Positions 34,168 through 40,268 of a stretch of 64,000 nt of DNA are shown piece after piece. Source of the stretch: Armatimonadota bacterium (GTDB lineage: Bacteria; Armatimonadota; Fimbriimonadia; Fimbriimonadales; Fimbriimonadaceae); NCBI GenBank assembly GCA_022563855.1, contig JADFMN010000003.1:248001-312000 (forward strand), read 5' to 3'. The position numbers were made by a program, and so were the translations under genes. The notes under the pieces were generated by a model. The model saw nothing but the letters and a program-made list of their open reading frames with translations, was not told the origin of the DNA and made no database searches. The first letter of the stretch is position 1. Each line of letters begins with the position of its first letter.

Positions 34168-35544
34168 GTGTTGAAGCGGTGGTTGCCTTGGCTGGTCGTC
34201 GTGGTCGCAGTGTGCGCGTTGGTTTACGCGGGCAAGGCGACCTCATCCATGCTCCTTCAGGACACGGATACCGTCGCGCTTCTGAACAGAATCCGCGAGG
34301 TTAAAGACCCGATGGCGTGGTTCAAAGGCGACTGGCCTCTGCAGAACCACTTCTACCGCCCGATTTCGACTCTGACCTTCGAGTGGGACAACGCGCGTTT
34401 CGGCGACGATGCCGCAGGGTACGGGCGGACCAACGCAATCATCGCAGTCGTTTGCATCGTGCTGCTTTTCTGGCTGTTGCGCGAGCTGACCGATTCGCCC
34501 TGGCTCGCCGGCGTTTCAACTGTGCTGTTCGGGGTCTGGCACCTCGGCAGTTCCTACTTCAGCCTTCTTGCGACTGCTCTCTTGTGGCTCGCGCCGCTCT
34601 GTCTCTTGGGAGTGTTGCGGGGAGGGAAGCAGAAGATCGCTCCGTGTGCGGTCGCTGCGCTTGGGTGCCTCTTTCTGTCGTCGCAGCTGCTTCCGGTCGA
34701 GCCGTTCTCCGAACGCATCCTCGACTGGCTTCCTGGCCGCACCGCGTCGGTCATGACGGTATTCGCGCTGATCTCGATGGCGGCGTTTGCGCGGTACGTG
34801 CGGCTGTCAGGAAAACGCGCGCCGATGAAAGCGTCTGTCGACGATGTTCCGGATTCGAAGCACGCGCCATCGCCGGTCGAGCCGTCGAAGTTCGTCTGGC
34901 TATGGGTCTTGGTCGCGCTTGCGGGAGTCGTTCTCGCTCTCGGCAGCTACGAGCAGGCAGTCATGCTCCCTGCGGCAATGGTCGGCGTCGCGATCCTGTT
35001 CGCCGTGCGCGGGCAGAGGTCGGCGTTCTGGCCCCACGTCTGCTTCTGGCTGTTGATCGTCGGCTATTACTTCCTGCGCTTACAAGTTTTGCCGGCTGAG
35101 AGTTCGGGGTATCAGGATCAGCAATTTAGATCAGGCTCGGGGATGTTCATCATCCTCGGCGAGTATGCCTTGCCCGGTATCTTCGCTCTTTACATGACCC
35201 TCCCCGGCCTTTTCGCAGGCCCTGCGATACTGCTGACCGGTTCGTTCTGGATGCCCGTGCTGACGGCCGTCGGCAACTTCACGACTTACTGGCGCGCGTG
35301 GGGAGACAGGAACCTGCGGTGGCTGGTTTTCGGTTTTCTCAGCCTTTCGTTCGTCACTTATCTGCCGATGGCGTGGCTGAAGGACTTCGGGCACTACCAC
35401 TACTGGCCTTCTGCGTTGCGCGCGCCGTTCGTGGTTCTGCTGTTCGTGCTGGTGATGAAGCTCGTGGCTAGCGCAGCTTCGCTCCCAGAGCTTCGAGCGC
35501 CTGCACGGCGGCGTCCCGCACCTGGTTCGCTTCTTCGTCCGTGA
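34168..35544 (+). CDS. GT-C type polytopic membrane protein
   Basis: The 458-residue product has about ten hydrophobic segments. The first luminal loop reads QNHFYRPISTLTFEWDNARF, followed by a GRTNAII segment. This pattern is typical of GT-C glycosyltransferase-like proteins (RPLT...YHLTNLLLH in relatives). They use lipid-linked sugars, but the substrate cannot be inferred. An earlier GTG at 34144 is in frame; GTG 34168 is preferred because TATATT ends five bases before it. The last 25 codons overlap the end of pheT on the other strand by 77 bases. Confidence 0.7.
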   Translation: MLKRWLPWLVVVVAVCALVYAGKATSSMLLQDTDTVALLNRIREVKDPMAWFKGDWPLQNHFYRPISTLTFEWDNARFGDDAAGYGRTNAIIAVVCIVLLFWLLRELTDSPWLAGVSTVLFGVWHLGSSYFSLLATALLWLAPLCLLGVLRGGKQKIAPCAVAALGCLFLSSQLLPVEPFSERILDWLPGRTASVMTVFALISMAAFARYVRLSGKRAPMKASVDDVPDSKHAPSPVEPSKFVWLWVLVALAGVVLALGSYEQAVMLPAAMVGVAILFAVRGQRSAFWPHVCFWLLIVGYYFLRLQVLPAESSGYQDQQFRSGSGMFIILGEYALPGIFALYMTLPGLFAGPAILLTGSFWMPVLTAVGNFTTYWRAWGDRNLRWLVFGFLSLSFVTYLPMAWLKDFGHYHYWPSALRAPFVVLLFVLVMKLVASAASLPELRAPARRRPAPGSLLRP

Positions 35545-37504
35545 AGTTCTCGCCCTGCTTGCGGAGCTGCAGCGCGATCGCGAGGCTGTGCGACCCCTCG
35601 GGGATGCCCTTGCCCTCGTAGACGTCGAACAGCCACTGCTTCTCGAGAACTTCGCCACACGCTTCTCCGACGGCAATTTCCAAATCTGCGAAGGAGACGC
35701 TCTTTTCGACCACTACCGCGATGTCGCGGCGGGTTGCCGGGTTTCGGCTGACGCGCTTAAGGTGCCGCTCGGTCGCGTTCCGCTCAGAGAGAGTCGAGAG
35801 GTCGATCTCGGCGATCACCGTCTCTTTCGGCAGGTCTGTCTGTTCTGCGACGGTCGGGTGAATCTGTCCGAACACCCCGACGCGCTCGCCATCGACCGTC
35901 AGGACTGCTTGCCTGGTGGGGTGCATGCGCAGGTCTGGCTGCTCTGGCGCTGTGATTTCCGCCGTCGCGTCGATGCTCGCGCAGACACGCTCGACGACGC
36001 CCTTCATGCTGTAGAAGTCTGCGGTCGGCGACTGCTCTTTCTGCCAGTCCTCGTGCGGGTCTCCTCCGGTCGATAGGATCGCGAGGTCGAAGTGCTCGCG
36101 GTCCGGACTGAACACCTTACCGATCTCGAAGAGGTGCAGGTTCTGGTTGCCGTTCTTGTTCGCCGCGTCCGCGACAGAGGGCAGGTTGCTGTTGCGCAGA
36201 AAGGCGATCTCAGGCGAGTGCGGGTTGCGGACCTTAAGCCGTTCGCCAGGTGCGTCGAGCGGGTGGACGTTGCGCAAGCTGTGACTGATCGTCTGCGTCA
36301 GGCCACACCTGAGAAGCTCTTCTCGCACTCGGTCGATCTTCGCGTCCGCGCCGAACACTCCGCCGCGCGTCGTCTCGCCCTTCGGCAGAATCTCGGGGAT
36401 CTTCTCATAGCCGTGGATGCGGCCGATCTCCTCGACAAGGTCGTCCTCGCGCAGGATGTCGATGCGCCAGGTTGGTGCCGTGCACACCAGGCTGCTGTCG
36501 CTCTGTTCGACCTCGAAGCCGAGCTTTTTCAGGTAGCCGGTGGCCTCATCCTGCGCTACGTCCATTCCTAAAACCTTCGCGACGCGGCTCATGCGGACGA
36601 TGATCGGCTCGGGCTTCGGTGGGCGCGGGTACACGTCGATGATTCCGCGCACGGACCAGTCGCCGGTCGCCTCCTCATAAAGCTCAGTGAACCGGTTCAG
36701 CGCGGCGACGACTTGCTCTGGGTCGACGTACCTCTCGAACCGGTAGCTCGCCTCGCTCGATATGCCGAGCCTCGTGCGCGTGTTCCGCACAGATTTGTGG
36801 TCGAAGCTCGCGCTCTCCAAGAGCATCGTTTTCGTCGTGTCGCCGACTTCGCTCTCCATCCCACCCATCACGCCCGCGATCGCGACGGGGCACGACGCAT
36901 CGCAGATCATCATGTCTTTCGTGGTGATCGTCCGCTTCTCCTCGTCGAGCGTCGTGAACGTTTTCTCCTTTGCATCCGCTTGCCGCACGACGATCCTTTT
37001 TCCTTCCAGCTTGTCCAGATCGAAAGCGTGCAGCGGCTGACCGGTCTCGAACATCACGTAGTTCGTCAGATCGACGAGCAGCGAGATGGGGCGCTGACCG
37101 ATCTGCCTGAGCCGGTCTTGGATCCAGCCGGGCGTAGGGCTGTTCTTGACGTCCTCGAATACCCGGCAGCCGTATCTGTTGCAGCGGTCGGTCTCGATCT
37201 CGACGCTGGTCAGCTTGCTCGCCTCGTCGGCCATCTGGTCGCCGGCCTCGAAACGGACTTGCGCCCTTTCGTAGAGCGCCTTCGGCTTGGCGCTCGCGTC
37301 CTTGGCGAGCAGTTCGCGCGCGACCCCGATCACGCTCGGCCCGTCTCCGCGGTTCGCCATGATGTTGACGTCCAGCACGTTCTCGCCCTCGACCACCGCG
37401 ATCCCCTCGATCTCGAACCCGGTCATAGTCAGTAGGTCGCCGATCTCCTCGACGGAGAGCGGCGTGTCCACGTAGTCCCGGAGCATGGATTCGGTCAGCT
37501 TCAC
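35468..37504 (-). CDS. pheT: Phenylalanine-tRNA ligase beta subunit, short form
   Basis: The 678-residue protein is the tRNA-recognising beta chain of the heterotetrameric PheRS. It contains the B1 start (LRDYVDTPLSVEEIGDLLTM), the B3/B4 editing region (NYVMFETGQPLHAFD), the B5 region and a C-terminal FDX-ACB anticodon-binding domain (VSRNPATRRDIAVVVEKSV). The usual ~100-residue tRNA-binding OB domain (B2) between GFEIEGI and LDVNIMANRGD is missing, which explains the length versus the common ~800. It is separated from pheS by a transposase gene. Confidence 0.93.
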   Translation of the reverse strand: MKLTESMLRDYVDTPLSVEEIGDLLTMTGFEIEGIAVVEGENVLDVNIMANRGDGPSVIGVARELLAKDASAKPKALYERAQVRFEAGDQMADEASKLTSVEIETDRCNRYGCRVFEDVKNSPTPGWIQDRLRQIGQRPISLLVDLTNYVMFETGQPLHAFDLDKLEGKRIVVRQADAKEKTFTTLDEEKRTITTKDMMICDASCPVAIAGVMGGMESEVGDTTKTMLLESASFDHKSVRNTRTRLGISSEASYRFERYVDPEQVVAALNRFTELYEEATGDWSVRGIIDVYPRPPKPEPIIVRMSRVAKVLGMDVAQDEATGYLKKLGFEVEQSDSSLVCTAPTWRIDILREDDLVEEIGRIHGYEKIPEILPKGETTRGGVFGADAKIDRVREELLRCGLTQTISHSLRNVHPLDAPGERLKVRNPHSPEIAFLRNSNLPSVADAANKNGNQNLHLFEIGKVFSPDREHFDLAILSTGGDPHEDWQKEQSPTADFYSMKGVVERVCASIDATAEITAPEQPDLRMHPTRQAVLTVDGERVGVFGQIHPTVAEQTDLPKETVIAEIDLSTLSERNATERHLKRVSRNPATRRDIAVVVEKSVSFADLEIAVGEACGEVLEKQWLFDVYEGKGIPEGSHSLAIALQLRKQGENFTDEEANQVRDAAVQALEALGAKLR

Positions 37505-37539
37505 GGCACGGCTATTCTACTTAGTTCTGTTTTTGGGTG

Positions 37540-37568
37540 GCATGGGTGACCTACTGGATCACCCATGC
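37540..37568. repeat. Hairpin downstream of the RAYT gene
   Basis: The 10-bp stem GCATGGGTGA / TCACCCATGC has a nine-base loop. It is followed at once by the small palindrome CGGCTTCAGCCG. It lies between the transposase stop and the pheT start and may be a REP substrate or a terminator. Confidence 0.75.
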
Positions 37569-37587
37569 GGCTTCAGCCGGGATTGGA

Positions 37588-38079
37588 CTAAACTTTCGCA
37601 TAATCCGGCTTGATCAGTCCTGACTCTCTGTCCTGGTACCACTTTGCTGATGACCACAAGTAGTCAGACGGACTACTGCAAAGACCTGCCTTGACAGGGT
37701 TCATATGGATATAGTCGATACTTGCTTGCGTCGCCTTCGTGGTGAAAAGATTTCGGTCATACCCACCACCTTTTTGCCAGACTCTCGGCTGATTGCAACG
37801 TGCGAGTTTGATCATCTGGCGAGAGAACGGTTGCTTGATAGACTTGAGTATCTCTGCGACCTTTGCGCCCTCTGTTCCCGGCCACACAAGCAGGTGGACG
37901 TGCTGGGGCATCAAGACGTATGCCCACAGTTCAAACTTCTGGCGCTCTCTCGCTTGACCAAGGTATTGCAGGAACAGTCTGCAGTTCTTGTCGATGCGGA
38001 AGTACTGGACGTTCTTGTATGTGCTGAACGTCAGTTCGTGCGCGTGTCCAGGCTCATCGTAGGAGATACGGTGTCCCAT
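37588..38079 (-). CDS. REP-associated tyrosine transposase (RAYT, IS200-like Y1)
   Basis: The 163-residue protein has the TnpA-REP fold signatures: the HUH motif in MPQHVHLLVW (His60, His62) and the catalytic tyrosine in IDYIHMNPVKAGL (Tyr123). Typical IS200 ends are absent. RAYTs are single-copy domesticated HUH nucleases that act on short palindromes called REPs. This one sits between pheS and pheT in the same direction, and hairpins flank it on both sides (37540-37568 and 38124-38150). The ATG at 38079 gives the usual family N-terminus. The gene appears intact. Confidence 0.9.
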   Translation of the reverse strand: MGHRISYDEPGHAHELTFSTYKNVQYFRIDKNCRLFLQYLGQARERQKFELWAYVLMPQHVHLLVWPGTEGAKVAEILKSIKQPFSRQMIKLARCNQPRVWQKGGGYDRNLFTTKATQASIDYIHMNPVKAGLCSSPSDYLWSSAKWYQDRESGLIKPDYAKV

Positions 38080-38123
38080 TGTTGAACTGCATTGTACATG
38101 GATGTGCTCACTGGCTAGCGCCA

Positions 38124-38150
38124 CAGGGGCAATGCGGTTGCTTGCCCCTG
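38124..38150. repeat. Hairpin upstream of the RAYT gene
   Basis: A perfect nine-bp stem CAGGGGCAA / TTGCCCCTG with a nine-base loop lies in the gap between pheS and the transposase start. Confidence 0.75.
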
Positions 38151-38168
38151 CCACCCACGCTGCGGCGA

Positions 38169-39164
38169 TTACCCGAACTGCTCCAGGAACCGGATGTCGT
38201 TGTCCATGAAGTAACGCAGGTCGTCGACGCCGTACGCCATCATCGGGACGCGCTCGACTCCGAGGCCGAACGCAAACCCGCTGTACCGCTCCGTGTCGAT
38301 GCCGTAGGCGTCCAGGATGTTCGCGTGGATCATCCCCGCGCCGCCGAGCTCGACCCACTTGCCGTCGAACAGCTTCGGCGTCGAGATTGAGTAGTCCACC
38401 CCCGGCTCGACGAACGGGAAGAAGTCCGGTCGGAATCGCACCTTAGCACCTTCGCCAAACATATCGGAGGCGAAAGCCCGCAGCGTCCCCTTAAGGTGCG
38501 CCATCGAAATCCCTTCGTCGACCATGAACGCATCGACCTGGTGGAACGTGTGGCCGTGCGTGCGATCGACCGCCTCGTTGCGGAAGCAGCGCCCGACAGT
38601 GAAGAACCGGAAGGGCGGTTTGAACTCCTCGAAGATCCGACCCTGGAACGCCGTGCCCTGCGTGCGAAGAAGGTGCGTGTCGTCCACGTAGAACGTGTCC
38701 TGGTCGTCCATCGCGGGGTGGTTGGGCGGGTAGTTCAGCGCCTCGAAGTTGTACTTGAACTCCTCCAGCTCCAGCCCTTCGTAGTAGGTGAAGCCGAGGG
38801 ACGACAAGGTTTTCTTGATCTTGTTCGTCGCTTGCTGCAACACGTGCTCGAGCCCAGCCTGCGGCGGGCGAGACGGCATCGTCACATCGATCCGCTCCGC
38901 ATCGAACTGCGAGGCAAGCTCGCCTGACTTCAAATCCCCCACGCGAGAGTCGATCAGCGACTGCAACCGCGCCGTCGCCTCGTTCACCCCCGCCCCGAAC
39001 TTCGGCCTTTCTTCCTTGGAAAGAGACCCGATGGAGCGCATCAAGCCGGTGAGTTCGCCGTGCTTGCCCAGGTACTTCAGCTCTAGCTCGCGCAGCTCGG
39101 CGGTCGTAGCCGCGGCCGCAACCGCAGAACGCGCTGCTGACTCCAGTTCGGCGATCTGCTCCAT
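38169..39164 (-). CDS. pheS: Phenylalanine-tRNA ligase alpha subunit
   Basis: The 331-residue protein is the catalytic chain of PheRS. The N-terminal coiled coil is followed by class II motifs: motif 2 in FRFFTVGRCFRNEAVDRTHG, and motif 3 in GFAFGLGVERVPMMAYGVDDLR. The segment HTFHQVDAFMVDEG is also diagnostic. It charges tRNA-Phe. It would be the first gene of a pheS-RAYT-pheT unit. The 114-base upstream region, shared with the divergent FliL-like gene, shows no T-box or attenuator that I can recognise. Confidence 0.95.
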   Translation of the reverse strand: MEQIAELESAARSAVAAAATTAELRELELKYLGKHGELTGLMRSIGSLSKEERPKFGAGVNEATARLQSLIDSRVGDLKSGELASQFDAERIDVTMPSRPPQAGLEHVLQQATNKIKKTLSSLGFTYYEGLELEEFKYNFEALNYPPNHPAMDDQDTFYVDDTHLLRTQGTAFQGRIFEEFKPPFRFFTVGRCFRNEAVDRTHGHTFHQVDAFMVDEGISMAHLKGTLRAFASDMFGEGAKVRFRPDFFPFVEPGVDYSISTPKLFDGKWVELGGAGMIHANILDAYGIDTERYSGFAFGLGVERVPMMAYGVDDLRYFMDNDIRFLEQFG

Positions 39165-39278: not shown

Positions 39279-40268
39279 ATGGCGGAAGAGCAGGTAAGGC
39301 GAAGAATTGAGGATAGGGAGGAGGAGCCGGTCGAGGCCGCAAAGCCGAAGAAGAAGCTGAGCCCGAAGGCCAGGAAGAAGGCTGCCCTAAAAGCCAAGAA
39401 ACAGGCCAAGCTCGACAAGAAGCAAGCCAAGCTGGACAAAAAGGCCGCTCGGCTAGAAGCGAAGAAGGGCAAAGCCGGAAAGAAGGCGAAGAAGGCCAAG
39501 GTTGAAGAGGTTCCGAAGGACAGCGAGGCCGCAGAGAAGCCGAAGAGGGACAAGGTTGAAGAAGGCCCGATCGACCGCGGTGCCAGAGAGAGACCTAACG
39601 AGGCCAAGAACGAAGAACGCCCGGCGGACAGCGATGCCGGAGAGAAACCGAAGAAGGCCAAGAAAGGCAAGAAGGACAAGAAGGCCAAGAAGGGCAAGAA
39701 GGCCAAGAAGGGTGAAGAAGACGCCAAGGGCGGCAAGAAAAAAGGAAAGCTGCCGATCATCGCCGCGATCGTCGTCGTCTTAGGCGCTGGCGGCTTTTTC
39801 GGTCTCAAGATGGCGAACGGCCCTGCTGAGGAGCCCGAAATCGAGCTCGGCGAAATGATGCAGCTCGGCGAATTCATCGTCAATCTCAGCGGCGGAAAAT
39901 ACTATTTGCAAGCTGAGATAACGCTGCACCTGTTTGAAGGGTACGAGCACGGCGGCGGCGGGCACGGCGGGGAGGAGGAAGGCGCCGATGGACTATCTCC
40001 TGTACGCGACGCGATCATCACCGTGATGTCGAGCGCAACGCTGGAGGAGGTCTTGACCACCGCTGGCAAGGAGCAGCTCAAGCGTGATCTTGCCGAGGCG
40101 ATCAACAAGGCGATGCTGGCCGCCAGCCACGACGATAGCGCGGACTCTCACGACGAGGACGGAGCAGAAGGAGAAGAGGAAGAGCCGAAGCACCCTGAAT
40201 GGCACTCGCAAGAAGGGCCGGTGCTCATGGTGTACTTCGACAAGTTTGCTGTTCAGCCGATGCGTTGA
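39279..40268 (+). CDS. FliL-like protein with long lysine-rich cytoplasmic tail
   Basis: This 329-residue protein has a very basic N-terminus of about 155 residues (Lys/Ala/Glu repeats such as KKAKKGKKDKKAKKGKKAKK), a single membrane helix at about 158-177, and a periplasmic FliL domain. That domain is recognised by MMQLGEFIVNLSGGKYYLQ, VRDAIITVMSSATLEEV and VLMVYFDKFAVQ. FliL supports flagellar stator function. The basic tail is far longer than in normal FliL. No flagellar genes are nearby. GGAG lies 11 bases before the ATG. It overlaps the convergent GT-C gene by 16 bases. Confidence 0.72.
   Translation: MAEEQVRRRIEDREEEPVEAAKPKKKLSPKARKKAALKAKKQAKLDKKQAKLDKKAARLEAKKGKAGKKAKKAKVEEVPKDSEAAEKPKRDKVEEGPIDRGARERPNEAKNEERPADSDAGEKPKKAKKGKKDKKAKKGKKAKKGEEDAKGGKKKGKLPIIAAIVVVLGAGGFFGLKMANGPAEEPEIELGEMMQLGEFIVNLSGGKYYLQAEITLHLFEGYEHGGGGHGGEEEGADGLSPVRDAIITVMSSATLEEVLTTAGKEQLKRDLAEAINKAMLAASHDDSADSHDEDGAEGEEEEPKHPEWHSQEGPVLMVYFDKFAVQPMR

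What the first reader, a model, noticed from the sequence alone, without database searches (positions are those of the whole stretch)
37540..38150. RAYT transposase inserted between pheS and pheT with flanking hairpins
A complete HUH/Y1 RAYT gene (37588-38079) lies between the two PheRS subunit genes, in their direction, with a hairpin on each side (37540-37568, 38124-38150). pheS and pheT usually sit next to each other. Transcription through the transposase may tie RAYT dosage to an essential operon, or the hairpins may uncouple pheT. RAYTs are known to act on REP palindromes, and the window contains many palindromic repeats.
Basis: partly seen in the sequence, partly recalled or inferred. 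Interest (0 to 1): 0.78.

Follow-up and report, generated by a model that had tools for sequence, protein, structure and literature searches.

The report
REP-flanked transposase gene between pheS and pheT
A small single-strand-DNA transposase gene, bracketed by the two short hairpin repeats it probably acts on, sits between the two genes of an essential enzyme in an Armatimonadota bacterium; it is a real but ordinary example of a known kind of element, and the location looks incidental because its relatives keep these two genes apart or put other genes there.

Summary
The hairpins are an inverted pair of REPs. Both carry the head GGGTGG, whose last four bases, GTGG, are a GT[AG]G guide at the hairpin foot. 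Both fold as 9 bp, a bulged A, 2 bp and a 4-nt loop, with compensatory differences. So this is a canonical REPtron. The host is a Fimbriimonadaceae (Armatimonadota) genome. That genome holds only one further copy of this REP, so it is not an abundant population. The same-genus genome has about eight more copies (E<=0.05), and its best-matching RAYT is a broken pseudogene elsewhere. Among RAYTs of relatives, 16 of 31 have GGGTG[GC]C heads facing inward on both sides, far above background. pheS and pheT are loosely linked in this family: adjacent, separated by assorted genes, or apart. No other examined pheS locus has a RAYT there, and the gene is AT-rich for its surroundings. This fits a recent, incidental insertion into a pheST with a spacer of about 42 nt. 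I found no evidence for dosage coupling, and the hairpins are not terminator-like. It is a new member of a known kind, of modest interest.

The parts
38169..39164 (-). pheS, phenylalanine--tRNA ligase alpha subunit, 331 aa, upstream neighbour
   Evidence: TIGR00468 287.5 bits, cut-off 237
38124..38156 (-). upstream REP: GGGTGG + hairpin CAGGGGCAA-GC-AACC-GC-A-TTGCCCCTG; GTGG guide at the foot
   Evidence: DNA fold -11.6 kcal/mol, z -3.4; model R1 53.9 bits; near-copy at G000:C10:87457-87489
37588..38079 (-). RAYT (TnpA_REP), 163 aa, HUH motif H60-V-H62, catalytic Tyr123 in YIHMNP; GC 51.6% against 62-63% for its neighbours
   Evidence: NF047646 98.5 bits; 4er8 E. coli TnpA_REP E 1.4e-8; alignment A1; composition
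37535..37568 (+). downstream REP, inverted relative to the upstream one: GGGTGG + hairpin CATGGGTGA-CC-TACT-GG-A-TCACCCATG(C)
   Evidence: DNA fold -12.5 kcal/mol, z -4.6; model R1 51.6 bits
35468..37504 (-). pheT, phenylalanine--tRNA ligase beta subunit, 678 aa, downstream neighbour, GTG start
   Evidence: TIGR00472 552 bits

Best explanation
This is a REPtron: a single-copy RAYT (TnpA_REP, a Y1/HUH single-strand endonuclease) with its two cognate REPs in inverted orientation. By analogy with E. coli TnpA_REP, the enzyme recognises the single-stranded REP hairpin together with the GTGG guide at its foot, cleaves nearby through Tyr123, and so moves or copies REPs rather than its own gene. The whole unit, from REP to REP, sits between pheS and pheT and leaves only 12 + 30 nt of other sequence, so it most likely arrived as a unit in a compact pheST spacer. 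Being co-directional, the gene may be read from pheS transcripts, but nothing shows that this position is selected. Shown here: the gene, the inverted REPs, their compensatory divergence, dispersed copies in this genome and in the same-genus genome, and uniqueness of the location. Inferred: cleavage, mobility, arrival as a unit, read-through.
For: RAYT model above curated cut-off and homology to solved TnpA_REP 4er8. HUH, WQ, Tyr and YxxxNP motifs intact. Both hairpins share the head GGGTGG and the 9-bp/bulged A/2-bp/4-nt-loop fold. With the C10 copy, 4 of 11 pairs change on both sides and all cells are paired; across 11 REPs from the two congeneric genomes 94% of cells are paired, with 13 double changes and 0/500 shuffles as good. 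In 31 RAYT loci with full flanks, an inward head lies upstream in 19, downstream in 22 and on both sides in 16, against 7 and 3 outward and a background of 0.075 per 260-nt strand. The CM finds 3 strong copies in this genome and 8 at E<=0.05 in the same-genus genome. GC and GC3 of the RAYT are far below its neighbours. None of about 60 fully or partly readable pheS loci of relatives has a RAYT there.
Against: Only 3 strong copies of this REP type are in the genome, far fewer than the >100 usual for REP populations (PMC2817692), so current activity is doubtful. The two flanking REPs differ from each other more than is usual for one REPtron. The guide-contacting residue R104 of E. coli TnpA_REP has no obvious match after the clade's GGGYDRN segment (by eye). 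No close strain with an empty site was found; the congener's pheS is absent from its 68%-complete assembly and only the 3' end of its pheT is present.
Confidence: 0.86

Rival explanations
1. Coupling: the RAYT is kept between pheS and pheT because co-transcription ties its dosage to an essential operon, or because the hairpins tune pheT expression.
For: Co-directional, and the REP-to-REP unit fills nearly the whole interval.
Against: Not seen in any other examined relative. pheS-pheT spacing and linkage vary freely in the family, including VOC-family, RNR-like and antisense genes in the gap, or pheT 26 kb away or on another contig. No terminator-like site and a promoter-like count within chance. 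The RAYT looks compositionally recent.
Confidence: 0.07
2. The hairpins are pheST leader, attenuator or processing elements that have nothing to do with the RAYT.
For: They lie in spacers that are probably transcribed; aminoacyl-tRNA synthetase operons often carry RNA regulators (general knowledge).
Against: No Rfam match in the pheST region. The same element with the same GGGTGG head lies elsewhere in this genome and at several places in the congener. Such heads flank RAYTs of relatives at unrelated loci.
Confidence: 0.03
3. It is an autonomous IS200/IS605-type insertion sequence that moves as a unit.
For: Y1 transposase domain and flanking hairpins.
Against: NF033573 (IS200) was not reported for this protein, whereas NF047646 passes. 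The Y motif is YIHMNP (class 2), not Y[IV]ENQ. It is single copy: the nearest genomic homologue is 37% identical. REP copies occur without the gene.
Confidence: 0.04

Closest known systems
REPtron / RAYT-REP units of gammaproteobacteria (Nunvar 2010, PMC2817692; E. coli TnpA_REP, PDB 4er8)
   Same: Single-copy Y1/HUH gene with two inverted REPs; GT[AG]G at the hairpin foot; imperfect stem; compensatory divergence of the REPs
   Different: Armatimonadota host; extended GGGTGG head; only 3 strong REP copies; the two flanking REPs differ in sequence; a GGGYDRN segment after the WQ motif; located between pheS and pheT
TnpA_Y1 class 2 subclasses with long canonical REPs, e.g. 2.7 (Quentin 2018, PMC6006769)
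   Same: Y---NP signature, WQ motif, HVH, canonical GT[AG]G REPs
   Different: QHVH and YIHMNP instead of [ND]HVH and YI[LR][NQ]NP; subclass assignment not tested by tree
REPINs / BIMEs (Bertels and Rainey 2011, PMC3116915)
   Same: Inverted REP pairs; other REP families in this genome form such pairs (G000:C8:114794-115042, C1:538698-538892)
   Different: The pheST REP pair encloses the RAYT itself; no REPIN of this REP type was found in this genome

Membership tests
RAYT (TnpA_REP) | Curated RAYT profile above cut-off | tested here: met
   NF047646 98.5 bits, cut-off 80
RAYT (TnpA_REP) | HUH pair, catalytic Tyr and class-2 Y---NP signature | tested here: met
   H60-V-H62, Y123-IHMNP, alignment A1; signature from PMC6006769
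RAYT (TnpA_REP) | Low intragenomic copy number, no near-identical copies | tested here: met
   Nearest genomic homologue 37% identical
[quoted passage not shown]
   37535-37568 (+) and 38124-38156 (-)
REPtron | GT[AG]G tetranucleotide at the hairpin foot | tested here: met
   GTGG directly before the stem in both; rule in PMC2817692 and PMC6006769
REP population | Cognate REPs abundant in the genome (usually >100) | tested here: not met
   3 strong matches in 3.18 Mb; 8 at E<=0.05 in the congener
REP population | REP copies outside the RAYT locus | tested here: met
   C10:87457-87489 in this genome; several contigs of G001
RAYT (TnpA_REP) | Cleaves and rejoins single-stranded REP DNA | not testable with these tools
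   Needs biochemistry
IS200/IS605 insertion sequence | IS200-type transposase profile and several near-identical copies | tested here: not met
   NF033573 not reported for this protein; single copy

The most novel reading that the evidence does not exclude
Fimbriimonadales carry their own class of RAYT/REP pairs: RAYTs with a WQxGGGYDRN segment paired with REPs whose head is GGGTGG or GGGTGC. The guide would have shifted (GTGG or GTGC) between REP families of the same genome, with REP families persisting after their RAYT dies.
Probability: 0.4. Interest if true: 0.4.

Novelty: new member of a known kind. Interest (0 to 1): 0.27.

Why it matters
It documents low-copy RAYT/REP units in Armatimonadota, a phylum for which I found no description in the papers searched. 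It gives a pair of congeneric genomes (intact RAYT with few REPs; broken RAYT with more REPs) for asking how REPs persist. It also shows that an element between two subunit genes need not be a regulatory device: pheST linkage in this family is simply loose.

Tried and rejected
Exact-stem searches for each hairpin gave only the window copies; the shared head and the structure model were needed to see the family. The BLAST query had a few mistyped bases at its 5' end, which did not affect the matches (aligned from base 4). Family-wide pattern counts are noisy: many relatives' hits look like chance, as the reversed controls show, so they were not used for counting. A terminator reading was rejected, and so was an RNA-family reading. 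The other RAYTs of the genome were examined as possible close duplicates and rejected: they are 25-37% identical, and of them only L002 has the GGGTG-type inverted pair. Phage and plasmid origins were checked: no phage match, only distant plasmid matches. A Pfam comparison of relatives' PheT failed on coordinates and was not repeated.

Full report
Observation. The minus strand reads pheS (38169-39164), RAYT (37588-38079), pheT (35468-37504). The profiles are pheS TIGR00468, pheT TIGR00472 and RAYT NF047646, all above their cut-offs. The RAYT is intact: H60-V-H62, W101-Q102, and Tyr123 in YIHMNP. Its only solved relative found by sequence is E. coli TnpA_REP, 4er8, E 1.4e-8. The two hairpins are at the stated positions. 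They are two of eight hairpins with stems of 9 or more in the window, where controls give 2-4.

The hairpins are REPs. Read outward to inward, both begin GGGTGG: GGGTGGCAGGGGCAAGCAACCGCATTGCCCCTG on the minus strand at 38156-38124, and GGGTGGCATGGGTGACCTACTGGATCACCCATG on the plus strand at 37535-37567. As single-stranded DNA both fold into the same shape: 9 bp, a bulged A, 2 bp, and a 4-nt loop. A third copy at G000:C10:87457-87489 differs from the upstream one by a compensatory change at one pair, in a place with no long open frame. Across the three, 4 of 11 pairs change on both sides and all remain paired. GTGG stands directly at the hairpin foot, which is the GT[AG]G guide that defines REPs of RAYTs (PMC2817692, PMC6006769).

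Copies and relatives. A covariance model of the three copies finds, in 41 genomes, three strong matches in this genome and eight at E<=0.05 (a ninth at 0.33) in the same-genus genome G001. Those of G001 have the same shape, mostly with GGGGTGA stems. Eleven aligned REPs give 94% paired cells, 13 double changes and no shuffle as good; the alignment is fitted to the model, so it leans towards the structure. G001 has no intact close RAYT. Its best match is a frameshifted, stop-containing fragment ending after the HUH region at another locus, with REP-like sequence just upstream. G001 is only 68% complete, so an intact RAYT could be missing from the assembly.

Generality. In 31 RAYT loci of the order with full flanks (including the window's own), GGGTG[GC]C heads face inward upstream in 19, downstream in 22 and on both sides in 16. 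Outward heads occur in 7 and 3, and the background is 0.075 per 260-nt strand. Some loci are near-duplicates, and part of the set had been looked at before the head was defined, so they are not fully independent. The genome also holds other REP families with heads GGGTGGCA or GGGTGCCA: CATGGTTGTCC, CACGGTCTG and CACGGGTTG types. The last flanks RAYT L002 on both sides, with a tandem array downstream. Some of the CATGGTTGTCC type form inverted pairs like REPINs.

The pheST context. Named relatives place the host in Fimbriimonadaceae, Armatimonadota. In relatives pheS and pheT are adjacent (about 0-60 nt), separated by about 140-1900 nt that in several cases holds VOC-family, RNR-like or antisense genes (names by eye from the translations), divergent, or far apart. 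pheT is 26 kb away in G017 and on another contig in G011. No relative has a RAYT in the interval. Taking the REP-to-REP unit away would leave 12 + 30 = 42 nt between pheS and pheT, a normal compact spacing. The RAYT has GC 51.6% and GC3 63%, against 62-63% and 84-86% for pheS and pheT, and lies in the lowest 1% of the window. This fits late arrival as a unit, but no empty-site strain was available.

Mechanism. By homology the protein binds single-stranded REP hairpins with the GTGG guide, cleaves through Tyr123 and moves REPs. This is inferred. Low REP numbers suggest little current activity or a young or declining system. Coupling to pheST is not excluded but has no positive support: no terminator-like site, one promoter-like site against 0.6 expected, no Rfam element in the pheST region, and no conservation of the arrangement.

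Verdict. A correctly spotted, canonical REPtron in an under-described phylum; the location is unusual but probably incidental.

Noticed in passing
35468-37504: PheT is 678 aa; the bacterial PheT profile matches only from position 158 and Pfam shows no N-terminal tRNA-binding domain. Relatives whose pheT starts 2-12 nt after pheS begin at the same residue, so this seems a lineage trait, not damage by the RAYT.
   Followed up: partly
L002 (G000:C5:110388-110997): Another RAYT of this genome is flanked by inverted GGGTGC-headed REPs, with a tandem array of about seven 23-nt partial REP units downstream.
   Followed up: partly
G000:C1:538698-538892 and G000:C8:114794-115042: Inverted pairs of CATGGTTGTCC-type REPs resembling REPINs; no RAYT homologue was listed near them.
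   Followed up: no
L007 (G000:C6:166175-166498 and flanks): A more distant RAYT homologue with three near-identical CCCTCCACACT...AGTGTGGAGGG hairpins around it, a different head type.
   Followed up: no
L245 (G001:C41): Broken RAYT of the same-genus genome: frameshift and stop, truncated after the HUH motif, with REP-like sequence upstream.
   Followed up: yes
39279-40268: Gene upstream of pheS, on the other strand, encodes a very Lys/Ala-rich N-terminal half before a membrane segment and a FliL-like C-terminal part (FliL-like by eye, not tested).
   Followed up: no
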